Assembly (NCBI GenBank): GCA_000309945.1
Contig: CM001633.1
Location: 2,940,199 to 3,004,198 of the forward strand
Origin: Leptolyngbyaceae cyanobacterium JSC-12
Lineage (GTDB): Bacteria > Cyanobacteriota > Cyanobacteriia > Leptolyngbyales > Leptolyngbyaceae
DNA: 64,000 nt
Direction of reading: 5' to 3'
Position numbers and translations under genes: made by a program. Each line of letters starts with the position of its first letter. Within the stretch, counting starts at the first letter, position 1. This document shows, piece after piece, positions 6,177 through 19,573 of this stretch. The notes beneath the pieces are model-generated. The model was not told the origin of the DNA. It saw only the letters and a program-made list of their open reading frames with translations, and searched no databases.

Positions 6177-7370
6177 ATGAGCCAAGCTGCACCGCGTCCC
6201 GCCATCAGGATAACTCCTTCATTGATGCCTTTCCTGATGATCTTCTTAGAATTGTTATTGGCAGCAGTAATTGGCTTCTGCTTGTTGTTGCTTGGCTCGG
6301 ATGGCACCTCCTGGATTTTGGGAGGCATCGCAGCTGGTGCGATCGCTTTCGTCGTTGGTCGCTTCTATTTCAATCTTGAATCGAAGCCCAATCGTACCGC
6401 TCGCAAAATTGGGCAATTGCTGGTTGGGCTAACAGTAGGGTTCTCAGTGCAACACAGCAATTGGTTGGGACTATCAGCAGATCTCCCATTATTCATCTTG
6501 CTAACAGGATGTTTGCTGCTTGGGGGAGCGACTGTTGCCTTCATCTATGCCAGGGTAGAGCGAACAGATTTGCTCACGGGTCTCCTGGCAACAACTCCTG
6601 GCAACATTGGTGTAATGGCTAGCATCGCGGCTGACTATGGCAGTAATCCTGCCCTGGTTTCGCTAGTGCAACTGATGCGCTTTACCGCTGTGACTTTTGC
6701 TATTCCTTTTCTCTCCAATATCTCCCATCCCAATGATGCCTGGGCGACGCTCTATGGTCTAGCTCACCATGCCATTGACACAGATGCCTGGTATTTGTTC
6801 TGGTTAGGATCAGTGCTGACGCTGGCTGGGATTAGCGTCAAACTGGGTGCAAACCTGCGAATTCCAGTTCCCGGTTTGATGTGTCCATTAGCGATTGGGA
6901 TTGGGTTTAATGCATTGTTTAATGCTGTCCCATTTTTCCCAGTCGTTGATTTCAATCCGCCAACGTTATTGAATGTGCTGGGTCAAATTTTGCTGGGCAT
7001 CACTATTGGGGAGTATTGGGGAATGAATCCTCATCTAGGGAAGTGGACGATCGCCCGTGCCACGATTCCAGCCACCTTAACGCTCCTTGTTGGTTTGAGC
7101 ATTGCGGGTATTGCCAAATGGCTAACCGCATGGGACTGGCTCACTTGCATATTGGTGACGGCTCCAGGTGGGTCTCCTGAAATGATCTGGATTGCCCTGA
7201 CACTAAATCAAAATGTGGAAGTGGTGACGGCTGGTCACTTAGTGCGGCTGATTGCGATTAACGCTTTGCTGCCAGTGATGATTTCAGCAGCGGGCTATGT
7301 GCAGCGATCGCCGCATTTGCAGTCAGTTCGAAGCTGGCTGACTGCAAGCAGAAAACTTTCTGAGACATAA
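6177..7370 (+). CDS. AbrB-family (PF05145-type) polytopic membrane protein
   Basis: The 397-residue product has about ten hydrophobic spans and two internally related signatures: TTPGNIGVMASIAADYGSN in the first half and TAPGGSPEMIWIALTLNQN in the second. Duplicated PGG/PGN-x-x-x-M motifs of this kind mark the AbrB/ammonia-monooxygenase-like membrane family (PF05145), whose transport or regulatory function is poorly defined. It should not be confused with the AbrB DNA-binding proteins. The ATG at 6177 is the first in frame; no strong ribosome site is visible. It lies downstream of the NAD cluster but is separated by 160 bp containing a repeat and hairpin, so it is probably a separate transcript. 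Confidence 0.8.
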   Translation: MSQAAPRPAIRITPSLMPFLMIFLELLLAAVIGFCLLLLGSDGTSWILGGIAAGAIAFVVGRFYFNLESKPNRTARKIGQLLVGLTVGFSVQHSNWLGLSADLPLFILLTGCLLLGGATVAFIYARVERTDLLTGLLATTPGNIGVMASIAADYGSNPALVSLVQLMRFTAVTFAIPFLSNISHPNDAWATLYGLAHHAIDTDAWYLFWLGSVLTLAGISVKLGANLRIPVPGLMCPLAIGIGFNALFNAVPFFPVVDFNPPTLLNVLGQILLGITIGEYWGMNPHLGKWTIARATIPATLTLLVGLSIAGIAKWLTAWDWLTCILVTAPGGSPEMIWIALTLNQNVEVVTAGHLVRLIAINALLPVMISAAGYVQRSPHLQSVRSWLTASRKLSET

Positions 7371-7410
7371 TTGTGATATTGCTGAAATTGCCGACTGCTT
7401 GCCATTCTTT

Positions 7411-7998
7411 ATGAGACTTATACCCTACCAACCACTACTGCTTCGTTTGCTCCATGGTGTTAGTGCCTTACTGGTGTTTGGTGCCTGGACAACGGGTTTC
7501 CTCGTCTACGATAGTTGGGATAAGCGCTTCGGTGGATTGGGGGTGACCGTGCGCGATCGCGGCTTGATTGATATTCATGGCACCTTCGGGTTTTTCCTAT
7601 TCTTCGTCTTCATCGCCTTCGCCATCTACAGTCTTTCAACAGGACAGAAACGCCTGGTTCAACGGGAATCTCTGAGACAACTCACCCAAGTTGGCAGACC
7701 AATCTGGTGGGTCGCACTCCAGCGAGTAACGAATACTACCATGCTGGCAGCCGCAGCATTAGCAGTTGGCTCTGGCAAGTTCCAGGATGAGAACTGGTTA
7801 CCTAACGGCGAAATGAATCACATCGCCTACTTCATTCATCTATTTGCCTGGTTACTGGTGCTACTAAGCCTCGCCGCCCATGTACTGATGAGCGCGAAAG
7901 TTGGAGGGGTTCCCTTGTTACTCTCCATGACCACTCTAAAAACCCGCTCTGATGATTGGCTCGTCAAAAAATTTCAGCGATTTGTCCTTAAGAAGTAG
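7411..7998 (+). CDS. cytochrome b561/b6-like membrane protein
   Basis: The 195-residue product has four predicted membrane helices. Each has a candidate haem-ligand His: LLHGVSALL near residue 15, IDIHGTFGFF near 56, YFIHLFAW near 142 and LAAHVLMSA near 156. This resembles the cytochrome b561/b6 superfamily and suggests a two-haem electron carrier in the cytoplasmic or thylakoid membrane. The frame opens at a TTG at 7399, but the ATG at 7411 is preferred. The gene follows the AbrB-type gene by 40 bp and converges with the cysteine desulfurase gene. Its electron partners are unknown. Confidence 0.7.
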   Translation: MRLIPYQPLLLRLLHGVSALLVFGAWTTGFLVYDSWDKRFGGLGVTVRDRGLIDIHGTFGFFLFFVFIAFAIYSLSTGQKRLVQRESLRQLTQVGRPIWWVALQRVTNTTMLAAAALAVGSGKFQDENWLPNGEMNHIAYFIHLFAWLLVLLSLAAHVLMSAKVGGVPLLLSMTTLKTRSDDWLVKKFQRFVLKK

Positions 7999-8023
7999 AT
8001 AACTGAAAGCGAGAACTACCACC

Positions 8024-9190
8024 TTAGACACTGGAAAAAACTCGCTGAGGTTGAAGGCGTTCCAGGACTTGCTTAAGCACTATCGTTGTCCAGTCAATAT
8101 CTTCAAGAGTGGTATGCCGTCCGAGGGTAAGGCGAATACCAGACTTCGCCACGCGATCGCTATAGCCCATCGCTTTTAGTACAGGGCTAGGAGTGACTTT
8201 GCCACTGCGACAAGCCGCACCTGCACTGATGCCAATACCAGCTAGATTCATTTGACGTACCAGTGCTTTCCCGGTCAAAACTTCGCCATCCGCGTATTCT
8301 ACGCAAAAGCTAGCGTGATGCGGCAAGCGCTGCCAGCGATCGCCTGTGGGTCTAAGTCCAGGTACATCTGAAAGCTGAGCAAATAAGCGATCGCGGAGTT
8401 CCAGCAGGCGCTGAGTCTCAACCAAAATTTCCTGAGCTGCCAGTTCAGCCGCAACACCAAATCCAGCAATGGCAGGAAGCGCTTGAGTCCCAGAGCGTAA
8501 GCCTGATTCCTGTCCACCGCCACCCAGAAAAGGCATGAGTTCTACACCAGGACGCACATAGAGTGCCCCTGCTCCCTGTGGACCATAAAGTTTATGGCTG
8601 GAAAGGGACAGTAAATCCACTGGAAACTGCTGTACATCAATCGGTAAACGTCCAGCAACTTGAACGGCGTCAGTATGAAACAAAGCACCATGAGAATGAG
8701 CAATCGCAGACAGAGTAGGAATTGCCTGGAGTGTCCCTACTTCACTTTGTCCATAGATAATCGACACTAAAACCGTGTTGGATTGCAGGGCTGCCCGCAG
8801 GTCAACTGGATTAATTCGCCCTTGCTGATCGACCGGGAGCCGCGTAACTTGCCAACCTTGCTGTTCCAGAAACCGAGCAGGTTCACTCACGGCAGAATGC
8901 TCAATACTGGAAATAATCAGATGTTGCGGTTCTGAATATTGACGAGCTACACCAAACAGCGCAAGGTTATCAGCTTCTGTGCCACCCGATGTAAACACGA
9001 TCGCTTCTTCTGGTGCATTAATCAGCCGAGCAACTTGTACCCGTGCTCGTTCTAAAGCTGTTGCTGCCCGTTGTCCCCATTGATGCAGGCTAGAAGGATT
9101 GCCCCACTGGTCTGAGAAAATCTGCTGCATTGCAGCGATCGCCTCCGGTCGCAGGGGAGTTGTGGCGCTGTAATCCAGGTAAATCTGCAT
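8024..9190 (-). CDS. cysteine desulfurase (NifS/IscS-type, class I-like)
   Basis: The 388-residue PLP enzyme begins IYLDYSATTPLRPEA. It shows FTSGGTEADNLAL, the substrate/PLP His in SSIEHSAV, PLP-Asp in FHTDAVQVAGRLPID, Schiff-base Lys in LSSHKLYGPQGAGALY, and the sulfur-carrying Cys in SAGAACRSGK near residue 330. It removes sulfur from cysteine for Fe-S cluster or thiolation pathways. The usual NNE(I/V)G segment is replaced by GQSEVG, removing an Asn that contacts PLP in IscS. It converges with the cytochrome gene and is followed upstream, on the same strand, by rpaB. It is not in a nif or suf cluster, so a housekeeping role is likely. Confidence 0.9.
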   Translation of the reverse strand: MQIYLDYSATTPLRPEAIAAMQQIFSDQWGNPSSLHQWGQRAATALERARVQVARLINAPEEAIVFTSGGTEADNLALFGVARQYSEPQHLIISSIEHSAVSEPARFLEQQGWQVTRLPVDQQGRINPVDLRAALQSNTVLVSIIYGQSEVGTLQAIPTLSAIAHSHGALFHTDAVQVAGRLPIDVQQFPVDLLSLSSHKLYGPQGAGALYVRPGVELMPFLGGGGQESGLRSGTQALPAIAGFGVAAELAAQEILVETQRLLELRDRLFAQLSDVPGLRPTGDRWQRLPHHASFCVEYADGEVLTGKALVRQMNLAGIGISAGAACRSGKVTPSPVLKAMGYSDRVAKSGIRLTLGRHTTLEDIDWTTIVLKQVLERLQPQRVFSSV

Positions 9191-9221
9191 AAATTCGAAA
9201 CGAGCAACCTACTCTTCCAGC

Positions 9222-9968
9222 TTACGTCTTCTCGTTTTCTCCAGGTTCTACAATTCGTTGAAAAAGATAACCTGTTCCCCGTGCAGTTAGGATAAGTTCA
9301 GGATTACTAGGATCATCCTCTAACTTGGCACGCAGTCGGGAAATGTGAACATCGACCACGCGGGTATCCACATGGCGTTCTGGGGTGTAGCCCCACACTT
9401 CTTGCAAGATTTCAGAACGGGAGAAAGCTTCTCCAGAACGGCTCACCAGCAATTCCAGCAAACTGAACTCCATCCCAGTCAACCGGATCCGTTCATCCCC
9501 CTTATACACCTGACGCTTGTTCGTATCGATCCGAATTGTGTTGATTTGGATCACACCAGAACTGGGAATACCAGAAGTCCCAGTTTTTTCTACCCGTCGT
9601 AACACGGAGCGAATTCGGGCTTCCAGTTCTTTAGGGGAAAATGGTTTTACCACATAATCATCTGCACCTAGTTCCAAGCCAGTGATGCGATCAGCAACAT
9701 CCCCCAACGCCGTCAGCATGATAATGGGCACATCCGACTCTTTGCGTAGCTCCTGACAAACACCGTATCCATCAAGCTTAGGCATCATCACATCCAACAC
9801 AACCAGGTCAGGATCAGCATTGCGAAACGTTTCTAGGGCTTCTTCTCCGTCGGCTGCCGTGACGACATCGTAACCAATCATTGAAAGACGGGTTTCAAGA
9901 ATACGACGAATACTTGCTTCGTCATCAACTACTAGGATTTTTTCTTTGTGGTTTTCCAACTTTCCCAC
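9222..9968 (-). CDS. rpaB: OmpR-family response regulator RpaB (Ycf27)
   Basis: The 248-residue product has a receiver domain (residues 10-125) with acidic pocket VVDDE, phospho-acceptor Asp59 in LVVLDVMMPKLDGYG and Lys in VVKPFSPKEL. A winged-helix DNA-binding domain (about 145-240) includes EVWGYTPERHVDTRVVDVHISRLRAKLE. The linker and overall sequence match RpaB, the essential regulator of high-light and photosystem genes that binds HLR1 elements. It is divergent from radA across a 176-bp spacer. I found no clear pair of HLR1 half-sites in that spacer. The partner kinase (usually NblS) is not in the window. Confidence 0.95.
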   Translation of the reverse strand: MGKLENHKEKILVVDDEASIRRILETRLSMIGYDVVTAADGEEALETFRNADPDLVVLDVMMPKLDGYGVCQELRKESDVPIIMLTALGDVADRITGLELGADDYVVKPFSPKELEARIRSVLRRVEKTGTSGIPSSGVIQINTIRIDTNKRQVYKGDERIRLTGMEFSLLELLVSRSGEAFSRSEILQEVWGYTPERHVDTRVVDVHISRLRAKLEDDPSNPELILTARGTGYLFQRIVEPGENEKT

Positions 9969-16197: not shown

Positions 16198-16404
16198 ATG
16201 ATTGCGTACATCAGCCCTCTAAACACAATCACTATTGCTCAAGTTGTAAAGCGAATTCTGAAGTCCGGCAAAATTACCCGTGCCGATGAAACGTTTTTTC
16301 TGCGGGCAATGGTAGCAGAAGATCCTTTAACCACTGAAGAAATGCAGCAAGTTCATGATTTGTTCAATCGGTTGCGAATGGGCTTGTTGAAAGTAGTTGA
16401 TTGA
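16198..16404 (+). CDS. small conserved-type cyanobacterial protein, 68 residues
   Basis: The 68-residue, mostly helical product has SPLNTITIAQVVKRILKSGKITRADETFF at the start and TTEEMQQVHDLFNRLRMGLLKVVD at the end. The pattern (short N-terminal strand, Lys/Arg-rich helix, then xGxLxVVD terminus) recurs in small cyanobacterial proteins I have seen, but their function is not known to me. There is no signal peptide or membrane span. It is a lone gene between two minus-strand genes, about 50 bp from the end of the large regulator-like gene. Confidence 0.65.
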   Translation: MIAYISPLNTITIAQVVKRILKSGKITRADETFFLRAMVAEDPLTTEEMQQVHDLFNRLRMGLLKVVD

Positions 16405-16456: not shown

Positions 16457-18991
16457 CTACCACCCCACGACAATCTTCCAGACTAAGGAACCAACAACAA
16501 CCATCGTCAGGTGTTGGGGCAAGAGGTTCATGAAGGGCTGACGAGCAATTTTTTGAGTCAACATCACACTAAGCCAGAAGGCAGAAATCAGGGTGACTGC
16601 TTGTAGAAACGAAATGACTGCGGGATGAGCGATTGCTACAGGCAAGTTCGCCGTACTAAACCCAAACGTCGCAAACGTGACTGGAATGATTTGTCCAGCT
16701 TCGGTCAACCCCAGTCGCAGGTAATGCGCCAGATTCGCTCCCAAGACTAACGGTAGATACCCATAGGCAAGTTCTAGAAAGGGGCGCGGTTTGACAGTCC
16801 GGTTGAACATCTGGATAAGTTGATGGCTGAGTAGCGCGATCGCCCCTGGCAAGAGCAAAGCCATAACAGACATCCCCGTATGCCAGCCGAAATTTTCCAG
16901 ATGCAGTGAGGTATGTAGCTCTACTTCAATTTCGGGTAAGCGGTGCAAAAACACAGCACCAAACAGCAAGAACAACAGGCAAACTTCGTGATAGCTAGGC
17001 GTATGCGTTGTCCACAGTTCAATCCCCGGTGGGCGCAGATTTAATTCTACTGAGCGATGAGGACAAGCTTTGAGGCAGGTCATACACAGCACACAATCCC
17101 GATTATCTTCCAGTTGTGCTGGGTGGGAATACAGCGGACAACCATTGGTTGCTTGCCCTTCCCCTTTTTGAGGTCCGCCTTTATAGCATTGATAAGTGGT
17201 ACAGGTGGCAGAGCAAATTCCTTGCTGAGCGCGTAGCTCGGTGATTGAAAGTTTAGCGAATAATCCATTCATACCGCCAATTGGGCACAGGTAGCGACAC
17301 CAAAAACGCCGTTCAAACACGAGCGAAAAGATAACGGCTCCCGCAGTGATTAGCAACAACAGACAACCGGATAGATAAGCAGTATTTTCCAGTTCCCAGA
17401 GTTCTTCCCAGAGTAGAATCAGCGTAAACATACCAAACAAGAACCACCCACCCCACTTTTGGGCTTCTTGCCGAGGCCAGGGTAGTAATTTCCGGGGATA
17501 AAGCCAGAGGGATAGCTTCTGGGCAATCTCGCCATAAATCATGAAGGGGCAAACTGCACACCATAAGCGCCCCACAAACGGAAATGCAATCAGTATTAAC
17601 ATCCACCACCATGCCCAAAACAGATTCAGCGCCAGGTTGCGTTCGCGGCTTTGCGGTCCCAACATCAATAGCAGCACCACCACCGCAAATAAACCAACGG
17701 TCACGCCATAGTTGAGGCGATCAGGATACCAGGGACTGCGAAGAAACTGGCGCAGGCGAGGGTAGCTGTTCAATAAATTGAGCCGGAAGCGCTTACTCTT
17801 GCTGCTGGGTGCCCAGAACACCTCTTCCGTTAATTCGCTTGCCCCATTCAACTGAATTACCGCCCGTTCCACCAAGCTCTCTAGTTCAGTTAAATTGCCA
17901 GGAAAATCATAGCCTTGTAGCCGTCGAATAGCCTCTGGAGTAACAGTGGGTTTTGGGATGCCCCGTTGCCGACAAAATAAGCTCAGGTAATATTCAACCT
18001 GCGCAGCAATGTCTGCCTTACGAATACGCAATGGTGCTACTTTGATAATGTGTTTAACTAATCCTTTTGGCTCTAGCGCAGGTAAAGTTCGCTCAGAGTT
18101 CATTAAAATCCGAGCATCACAGGTTTGCGGCTGGGGAAGTGGTTCGCCTTCGCGAGTAACAGGCGTGTATTTACCCGTTTTTAGCAACGTCACAACTTTA
18201 TCAAGTAATATCGGATTCAGGTCTTGCAAGTTGTTGAGCAGGACAGTGCCTCTCCCCACCCACTCCAGCAAACCAGGCTTGCCACCTGCCCGCCCAAAAA
18301 GTTCAGATCCACTTGCCTGTAAAGTTTCGCAGTTAATTTTGATCATCGGTTCGTGGCGATCGCTGGAACCAAAATGAATTAACGCCGCCACATTGTCTTT
18401 TCCCAATCCTGGTTCACCAAAAATTAGTACTGAGCCGCGATCGCACTGAGCCTTGCGAATTTCTTGCCGTTGTCGGACTGCATAGCGACTGGTTCCCACA
18501 ATACCTCGCTTCACCTTGGGAACCAGATAGGGACGCAGAGCCGCCTGGCGTTCCCGTTCGTATGCCAATTGAGCTGAAACCTGACTCAGTTCTGTGGCTA
18601 ACTGACGCGAAAACGTTTGGGAAATTTCAGGATGCTGCTTTACTAGCGCTAGAAATGCATCTCGCGGGATCAGCCACAGGATACATTCAGCCAGAGTAAT
18701 CACCGTCTGGTCAGCGACCTGATCCAACAGTAACTCTCTAAGATGAAACATTGCACCAGGCAACAATCCTACAGCCTGAGCCACAGTTGTTTGGCTAGTG
18801 CGATAGCTCTCCAATCGTCCTGTCTTGAGAATGTAGAGTGCGGTGGGAAGCGTATCTTCAAGAACAACACGGCGGTTTTCTGCAACAACTTCTTCTTGAA
18901 TAGCATCTGCGATCGCTGCCAGTACCTCGTCTGATAAAGAACCGAAAATAGTATTCTCACGCAGCCAATGAACTTTCTCCCATCGTTCCAT
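16457..18991 (-). CDS. fusion of cNMP-binding-like domain, degenerate sigma54-type AAA+ domain and membrane polyferredoxin
   Basis: The 844-residue product has three parts. Residues 8-140 form a Crp/cyclic-nucleotide-binding-like beta barrel. Residues about 163-395 form a NtrC-type AAA+ domain with Walker A GEPGLGKD (192-199), SELFGR (229-234) and DFPGNLTELESLVERAV (362-378). Residues about 428-844 hold multiple membrane helices with NapH/NosR-like Cys pairs (C478/C481, C565/C569), a Cys-rich segment (C593, C597, C602, C618) and a classical 4Fe-4S motif (C633, C636, C639, C643-Pro). The GAFTGA loop is missing and the Walker B acids are replaced (LLNNLQDL where FLDEIGDL is expected). There is no C-terminal HTH. 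Cyanobacteria lack sigma54, so this is not a conventional activator. A strong AGGAGG precedes the ATG. A redox-linked membrane sensor or electron-transfer protein is an inference. Confidence 0.85.
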   Translation of the reverse strand: MERWEKVHWLRENTIFGSLSDEVLAAIADAIQEEVVAENRRVVLEDTLPTALYILKTGRLESYRTSQTTVAQAVGLLPGAMFHLRELLLDQVADQTVITLAECILWLIPRDAFLALVKQHPEISQTFSRQLATELSQVSAQLAYERERQAALRPYLVPKVKRGIVGTSRYAVRQRQEIRKAQCDRGSVLIFGEPGLGKDNVAALIHFGSSDRHEPMIKINCETLQASGSELFGRAGGKPGLLEWVGRGTVLLNNLQDLNPILLDKVVTLLKTGKYTPVTREGEPLPQPQTCDARILMNSERTLPALEPKGLVKHIIKVAPLRIRKADIAAQVEYYLSLFCRQRGIPKPTVTPEAIRRLQGYDFPGNLTELESLVERAVIQLNGASELTEEVFWAPSSKSKRFRLNLLNSYPRLRQFLRSPWYPDRLNYGVTVGLFAVVVLLLMLGPQSRERNLALNLFWAWWWMLILIAFPFVGRLWCAVCPFMIYGEIAQKLSLWLYPRKLLPWPRQEAQKWGGWFLFGMFTLILLWEELWELENTAYLSGCLLLLITAGAVIFSLVFERRFWCRYLCPIGGMNGLFAKLSITELRAQQGICSATCTTYQCYKGGPQKGEGQATNGCPLYSHPAQLEDNRDCVLCMTCLKACPHRSVELNLRPPGIELWTTHTPSYHEVCLLFLLFGAVFLHRLPEIEVELHTSLHLENFGWHTGMSVMALLLPGAIALLSHQLIQMFNRTVKPRPFLELAYGYLPLVLGANLAHYLRLGLTEAGQIIPVTFATFGFSTANLPVAIAHPAVISFLQAVTLISAFWLSVMLTQKIARQPFMNLLPQHLTMVVVGSLVWKIVVGW

Positions 18992-19168
18992 TGGTCTTCC
19001 TCCTGGCAGATCTAGGCGATCGCGATCCCTCCGTTCATCCTACCTCCAGACCCCCCTTTATAGCGAAAACCTCTTGCTGCTGGGAATCAAGAAACTTGAA
19101 CCCTATCTGCAAGAGGCTTTGTAAATCAACAAAAATTTGACTATCTAATCAACTTAGTAGATCCCAGC

Positions 19169-19573
19169 TTAGTAGATCGAGCAAACTGCTTTGTTACCCT
19201 TCATTTTGATCAAGCCCTTGTCGCCGCTGATGACAAAAGGAACAGAATCTCTACCGACAACACGCACCAGCACAGGGCGAGCATACATGCACTTTCTAAT
19301 ATCTTCAGCCCAAACTTTGATGTCGCTACCAATGCCGTATTTACTGGTAATGGGGTTGTCAGCAAGATTATCATCCTTGGCAACCTGTACATCAATCGGC
19401 AGAGAAAATAGGGCAGGGTGAACAGGAGGGGTAGGCAACGTGTGAGATTCAGTACCCACAAAAGATTCACGAGGAAGAACGCGGGTCACTGCTTTGGGAA
19501 CTGCAGCAGCAGGCAGAGCTGTAACTGCCATCATTCCAGCAACACCAATCACAGACAGAATTCGCATGTTCAT
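19169..19573 (-). CDS. secreted hypothetical protein, 134 residues
   Basis: A clear signal peptide (MRILSVIGVAGMMAVTALPAAA) precedes a mature domain of about 110 residues with DIKVWAEDIRKCMYARPVLVRVVGRDSVPFVISGDKGLIKMKGNKAVCSIY. Two Cys could form a disulfide. I do not recognise the family. AGGAG lies 9 bases before the ATG, supporting the start. It stands between the regulator-like fusion and a glycosyltransferase gene, all on the minus strand, but spacers of 150-180 bp argue against one operon. Confidence 0.65.
   Translation of the reverse strand: MNMRILSVIGVAGMMAVTALPAAAVPKAVTRVLPRESFVGTESHTLPTPPVHPALFSLPIDVQVAKDDNLADNPITSKYGIGSDIKVWAEDIRKCMYARPVLVRVVGRDSVPFVISGDKGLIKMKGNKAVCSIY

What the first reader, a model, noticed from the sequence alone, without database searches (positions are those of the whole stretch)
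16457..18991. Fusion of a cNMP-like domain, an inactivated sigma54-type AAA+ domain and a membrane polyferredoxin
Seen: one open frame joins a Crp-like barrel, an NtrC-type AAA+ domain and a NapH/NosR-like membrane part with two Cys-rich segments, one with a classical CxxCxxCxxxCP motif. The GAFTGA loop is missing. The Walker B Asp-Glu pair is replaced by Asn-Asn while Walker A and the PGNLxELE segment remain. Known: cyanobacteria lack sigma54, so a standard enhancer-binding role is impossible. Inference: the AAA+ domain is now a nucleotide- or protein-binding regulator of a membrane redox module, perhaps sensing electron-carrier redox state. No HTH means DNA binding is unlikely.
Basis: partly seen in the sequence, partly recalled or inferred. 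Interest (0 to 1): 0.8.

Follow-up and report, generated by a model that had tools for sequence, protein, structure and literature searches.

The report
FesM: cyanobacterial membrane iron-sulfur protein

Summary
The 844-codon frame at 16457-18991 (-) is real. It carries a Crp-like barrel, an NtrC-type AAA+ domain with lid, and a NapH-like membrane part with two CP motifs and two 4Fe-4S sites. It is no assembly artefact: 104 of 386 cyanobacterial genomes have the family, mostly full length. The single homologue in Picosynechococcus PCC 7117, same genus as PCC 7002, has the same parts. The family is therefore almost certainly FesM (Xu et al. 2005), a membrane Fe-S protein needed for PSI cyclic electron flow. 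I could not read that paper; that it describes this architecture is from memory.

The AAA+ domain is a pseudo-ATPase. Walker B is Asn-Asn in 127 of 128 main-clade members, and GAFTGA and the arginine-finger segment are missing. The P-loop glycine is usually Glu, so 'Walker A remains' holds for this sequence but not the family. The Crp-like pocket is degenerate and the domain was lost several times, whereas all 12 redox cysteines are invariant.

A paralogue clade often sits next to cysteine synthase, sometimes near variant psbA and petC.

Verdict: known kind, new details, open mechanism.

The parts
16457..18991 (-). fesM orthologue, 844 aa, whole gene
18999..19004 (-). Shine-Dalgarno AGGAGG, 7 nt before the ATG
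   Evidence: read from the sequence
18632..18886 (-). cNMP_binding (Crp-like barrel), residues 36-120; phosphate-binding Glu and Arg replaced (L84, A93)
18080..18502 (-). Sigma54_activat AAA+ core, residues 164-304, no GAFTGA loop
18395..18418 (-). Walker A GEPGLGKD, residues 192-199
18230..18247 (-). Walker B position TVLLNN, residues 249-254, Asp-Glu replaced by Asn-Asn
17843..18028 (-). AAA_lid_14, residues 322-383, with PGNLTELE
17318..17731 (-). TM helices 1-4, residues 421-558
17546..17560 (-). CxxCP motif, residues 478-482
17282..17299 (-). CxxxCP motif, residues 565-570
17063..17215 (-). two 4Fe-4S ligand sets, Cys 593, 597, 602, 618 and 633, 636, 639, 643
   Evidence: invariant in all 149 homologues
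16466..17002 (-). TM helices 5-9, residues 664-842

Best explanation
This is the FesM orthologue of a Leptolyngbya-like cyanobacterium. [quoted passage not shown] The working part is the NapH-like membrane module: two 4Fe-4S clusters and two CP motifs on the cytoplasmic (stromal) face, carried by about nine membrane helices, placed to pass electrons between a stromal donor (ferredoxin or NADPH) and the plastoquinone pool or cytochrome b6f. The AAA+ domain is a pseudo-ATPase that cannot hydrolyse ATP and most likely serves as a docking, oligomerisation or sensing platform. The Crp-like domain has lost the canonical cAMP pocket and is dispensable in several lineages. Shown here: architecture, conservation, loss of catalytic residues, topology bias, loss of the barrel. 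From literature: the requirement for cyclic electron flow. Inferred: direct electron transfer, its donor and acceptor, and the role of the AAA+ part.
For: Picosynechococcus PCC 7117 (named through its identical 4675-bp plasmid) has one homologue at E <= 1e-60, 58% identical, with all the same Pfam domains. FesM is cited as a membrane iron-sulfur protein for PSI cyclic electron flow in PCC 7002, whose loss prevents mixotrophic growth with glycerol. Twelve Cys are invariant in 149 homologues. The CP/Fe-S segment is 92% identical on average, against 66% for the AAA+ core and 52% for the Crp-like domain. Loop charges put both CP motifs and the Fe-S segment on the inside (net +2.6 and +2.7, against about -1 for most of the opposite loops). 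Walker B acids, GAFTGA and the arginine-finger segment are missing.
Against: The 2005 paper is not held, so the match of architecture rests on memory of its abstract plus the single Picosynechococcus homologue; PCC 7002 FesM itself was not aligned. No electron transfer was measured anywhere here. A requirement for cyclic flow could also reflect regulation. The family is absent from 282 of 386 sampled genomes at the threshold used, so it is not a universal part of cyclic flow.
Confidence: 0.6

Rival explanations
1. FesM is a redox sensor rather than an electron carrier: the clusters read the stromal or plastoquinone redox state and the pseudo-AAA+ domain signals to a partner such as NDH-1, PSI or a soluble regulator.
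For: Regulatory-type modules are fused at the N-terminus and keep conserved surfaces (GGKxGLLEWLG, NN). In VpsR and FleQ, fold matches of the AAA+ part, AAA+ domains of this type bind c-di-GMP.
Against: Both regulatory pockets are degenerate and the Crp-like domain is lost in several lineages while the redox part is nearly unchanged.
Confidence: 0.25
2. It is a membrane-tethered transcription regulator of the bEBP type working with a sigma-70 factor, as old names such as 'nitrogen assimilation regulatory protein' suggest.
For: The AAA+ fold is that of bEBPs (Z about 20); a clade B homologue bears that name; GAFTGA-less, sigma-70-type bEBPs such as VpsR exist (own knowledge).
Against: No DNA-binding domain, no sigma-54 in the genome, about nine membrane helices, Walker B lost.
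Confidence: 0.05
3. It is a CcoG-like maturation factor that reduces a metal or disulfide for a membrane complex.
For: CP motifs plus clusters resemble CcoG, NapH and NosR (for NapH and NosR; CcoG from own knowledge); a stand-alone homologue in Deinococcus ficus follows a gene for a His-rich exported protein.
Against: No conserved metal-handling or assembly genes near the cyanobacterial genes; the reported phenotype is in cyclic flow.
Confidence: 0.1

Closest known systems
FesM of Synechococcus sp. PCC 7002 (Xu, Liu and Zhao 2005, doi 10.1104/pp.105.061549)
   Same: Membrane iron-sulfur protein (title); from memory, cAMP-binding domain, NtrC-like domain, redox motif and 4Fe-4S motif; single homologue of this family in a same-genus strain
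   Different: Different genus; 58% identity to the PCC 7117 homologue; residue-level decay of the AAA+ and Crp-like pockets is described here and I do not know whether it was reported
NapH/MauN and NosR membrane ferredoxins
   Same: Membrane helices with two CP motifs followed by two 4Fe-4S sites
   Different: Scores 50 and 41 bits against cut-offs of 213 and 234; extra five helices after the clusters; fused N-terminal domains; first cluster has unusual spacing
NtrC/PspF-type sigma-54 activators, and atypical ones (FleQ, VpsR)
   Same: AAA+ core and lid fold, Z about 20
   Different: No GAFTGA, no Walker B acids, no arginine-finger segment, no DNA-binding domain, membrane-bound

Membership tests
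FesM | Crp-like + NtrC-like AAA+ + membrane 4Fe-4S fusion in one chain | tested here: met
   Pfam; the description of FesM itself is from memory
FesM | Orthology to the PCC 7002 gene | tested here: inconclusive
   Only homologue at E <= 1e-60 in the same-genus strain PCC 7117; PCC 7002 FesM sequence was not at hand
FesM | Needed for PSI cyclic electron flow and growth with glycerol | not testable with these tools
   Literature for PCC 7002 only
Sigma-54 activator (bEBP) | GAFTGA loop | tested here: not met
Sigma-54 activator (bEBP) | Walker B Asp-Glu | tested here: not met
   NN in 127 of 128 main-clade members
Sigma-54 activator (bEBP) | DNA-binding HTH and a sigma-54 in the genome | tested here: not met
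Cyclic-nucleotide sensor | Phosphate-binding Glu and Arg | tested here: not met
   Aligned positions are L84 and A93; no Glu or Arg among the common residues at these positions
NapH/MauN family (TIGR02163) | Curated score cut-off | tested here: not met
   50.1 bits against 213.05; relatedness is clear, membership is not
NapH-like membrane ferredoxin | Two CP motifs and eight cluster cysteines | tested here: met
   12 of 12 Cys invariant in 149 sequences

The most novel reading that the evidence does not exclude
FesM is itself a ferredoxin:plastoquinone reductase outside NDH-1, and its dead AAA+ domain builds a ring or dock for ferredoxin, FNR or PSI. Clade B would then be a specialised version used with variant D1 and Rieske proteins and a cysteine synthase, perhaps under sulfide or low oxygen.
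Probability: 0.15. Interest if true: 0.75.

Novelty: new member of a known kind. Interest (0 to 1): 0.35.

Why it matters
How electrons return from ferredoxin to plastoquinone in cyanobacteria outside NDH-1 is not settled (own knowledge). FesM has a reported phenotype, but I found no later mechanistic work in the held library, and its name hides what the residues show: the regulatory parts are dead as enzymes and the redox part is almost frozen. That gives clear mutants to make. The clade B islands suggest a specialised version for sulfidic or low-oxygen life.

Tried and rejected
Operon partners of the main clade: none widely conserved; the gene stands alone. A separate cNMP gene beside copies without that domain: none found within the loci read. 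Structural relatives of the membrane part: nothing with E <= 0.001, best Z 5.4; the Fe-S segment was modelled at pLDDT under 50, so this is inconclusive. The Cupriavidus match at residues 1-394 is an ordinary PrpR-like activator with GAFTGA and Walker B intact. Literature under sigma-54 and AAA+ terms gave nothing. Synechocystis slr1529 ('nitrogen assimilation regulatory protein', lower under iron deprivation and high copper) may be an orthologue, but its sequence was not at hand, so I did not use it. In the automatic count of cNMP presence L123 and L124 are wrongly counted as having the domain, because their open frames run on upstream; one search is the correct test. No promoter signal above chance.

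Full report
The frame 16457-18991 (-) codes for 844 residues with a good ribosome-binding site (AGGAGG, 7 nt before ATG). Pfam finds cNMP_binding, Sigma54_activat, AAA_lid_14 and Fer4_5 in that order and no helix-turn-helix. The best solved-structure matches of the middle part are NifA, PspF and FleQ; in the predicted model it fits sigma-54 activator AAA+ domains at Z about 20 over 229 residues, and the N-terminal part fits cyclic-nucleotide domains at Z about 17. The genome, one contig of 5.53 Mb, has no sigma-54 DNA-binding domain, while E. coli, B. subtilis, Caulobacter and Bacteroides controls ring.

It is not an artefact. Of 386 cyanobacterial genomes, 104 have the family at E <= 1e-60, and the named-genome scan gave 80 loci, all but one matched over essentially the full length (the exception, L111, has a shorter frame). 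A three-clade picture comes out of 149 sequences. Main clade A (128) includes the window. Clade B (about 900 aa, about 40% identity) and clade C (one family of 2.3-3.7 Mb genomes, without the Crp-like domain) are each monophyletic with 100/100 support.

The AAA+ domain is a pseudo-ATPase. In clade A Walker B is Asn-Asn in 127 of 128; the invariant Walker A Lys is followed by Asp; and the P-loop Gly197 is Glu in 87, Gly in 35 and something else in 6. That site changed at least 14 times on a quick tree, which argues against a kept nucleotide pocket in most members. GAFTGA and the segment with the arginine fingers are deleted. Clade B has a proper GKT and usually keeps the Walker B Asp, but all 8 readable members have Asn for the catalytic Glu. 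Catalysis is therefore predicted to be lost throughout, while nucleotide binding may remain in clade B. The AAA+ core still averages 66% identity and its lid 70%, so the domain is constrained for some other reason.

The Crp-like domain is also worn. Aligned with protein kinase A, the phosphate-binding Glu and Arg fall on residues 84 and 93, which are Leu and Ala here and hydrophobic or small in the family. The domain is absent in clade C, in L131, L132, L133/L134 and in L135, with no separate gene nearby. cAMP binding of the canonical kind is unlikely.

The redox part is the constant core. All 12 cysteines (478, 481, 565, 569, 593, 597, 602, 618, 633, 636, 639, 643) are invariant in 149 sequences, and the CP/Fe-S stretch averages 92% identity. 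Hydropathy, the two models and loop charges agree on four helices, a cytoplasmic Fe-S segment, then five helices, with both CP motifs inside. The Fe-S segment itself is modelled at pLDDT under 50, so cluster geometry is not known. A stand-alone homologue in Deinococcus ficus shows that the module can exist without the N-terminal domains.

Identity. The protein recalled FesM of Synechococcus PCC 7002. Two held papers cite it as a membrane iron-sulfur protein required for PSI cyclic electron flow, and one says its loss prevents mixotrophic growth on glycerol. The original paper is not held. From memory its abstract lists a cAMP-binding domain, an NtrC-like domain, a redox sensor motif and a 4Fe-4S motif. 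As an independent check, held genome G058 carries a 4675-bp plasmid identical to one of Picosynechococcus PCC 7117, the same genus as PCC 7002. It has one family member at the search threshold, with the same Pfam domains. The link is strong but not a direct alignment with FesM.

Clade B deserves a note. In 7 of 11 loci a cysteine synthase follows directly; PsbA lies within reach in 4 and a PetC in 2, on two plasmids and several other contigs, with rhodanese, DsrE, DUF4079 and glutaredoxin-like genes on the plasmids. This ties the family to photosynthetic electron transport and suggests a sulfide or low-oxygen setting. That reading is inference.

What is left is a clear residue-level case that both regulatory modules are dead by the usual criteria, and an open mechanism.

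Noticed in passing
L113, L115, L117, L118, L138, L161 (AP018309.1), L162 (NZ_CP112877.1): Clade B FesM-like gene followed by a cysteine synthase on the same strand in 7 of 11 loci; PsbA in 4 and PetC in 2, with rhodanese, DsrE, DUF4079 and glutaredoxin-like genes on plasmids: perhaps a sulfide or low-oxygen photosynthesis island.
   Followed up: partly
window 16198-16404 (+): A 68-aa frame converging on the end of fesM is conserved at the same place in 12 loci of related cyanobacteria; function unknown.
   Followed up: no
L160 (Deinococcus ficus pDFI1) 7042-9323: Stand-alone homologue of the FesM membrane module directly after a gene for a His-rich exported protein; possible metal or redox pair.
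   Followed up: partly
window 19169-19573 (-): Small secreted-looking protein of 134 aa upstream of fesM, similar in 4 loci, no Pfam match.
   Followed up: no
L136 (G054), L137 (G066): Second, diverged clade A copies in genomes that also hold a normal copy; they group together on the tree.
   Followed up: no
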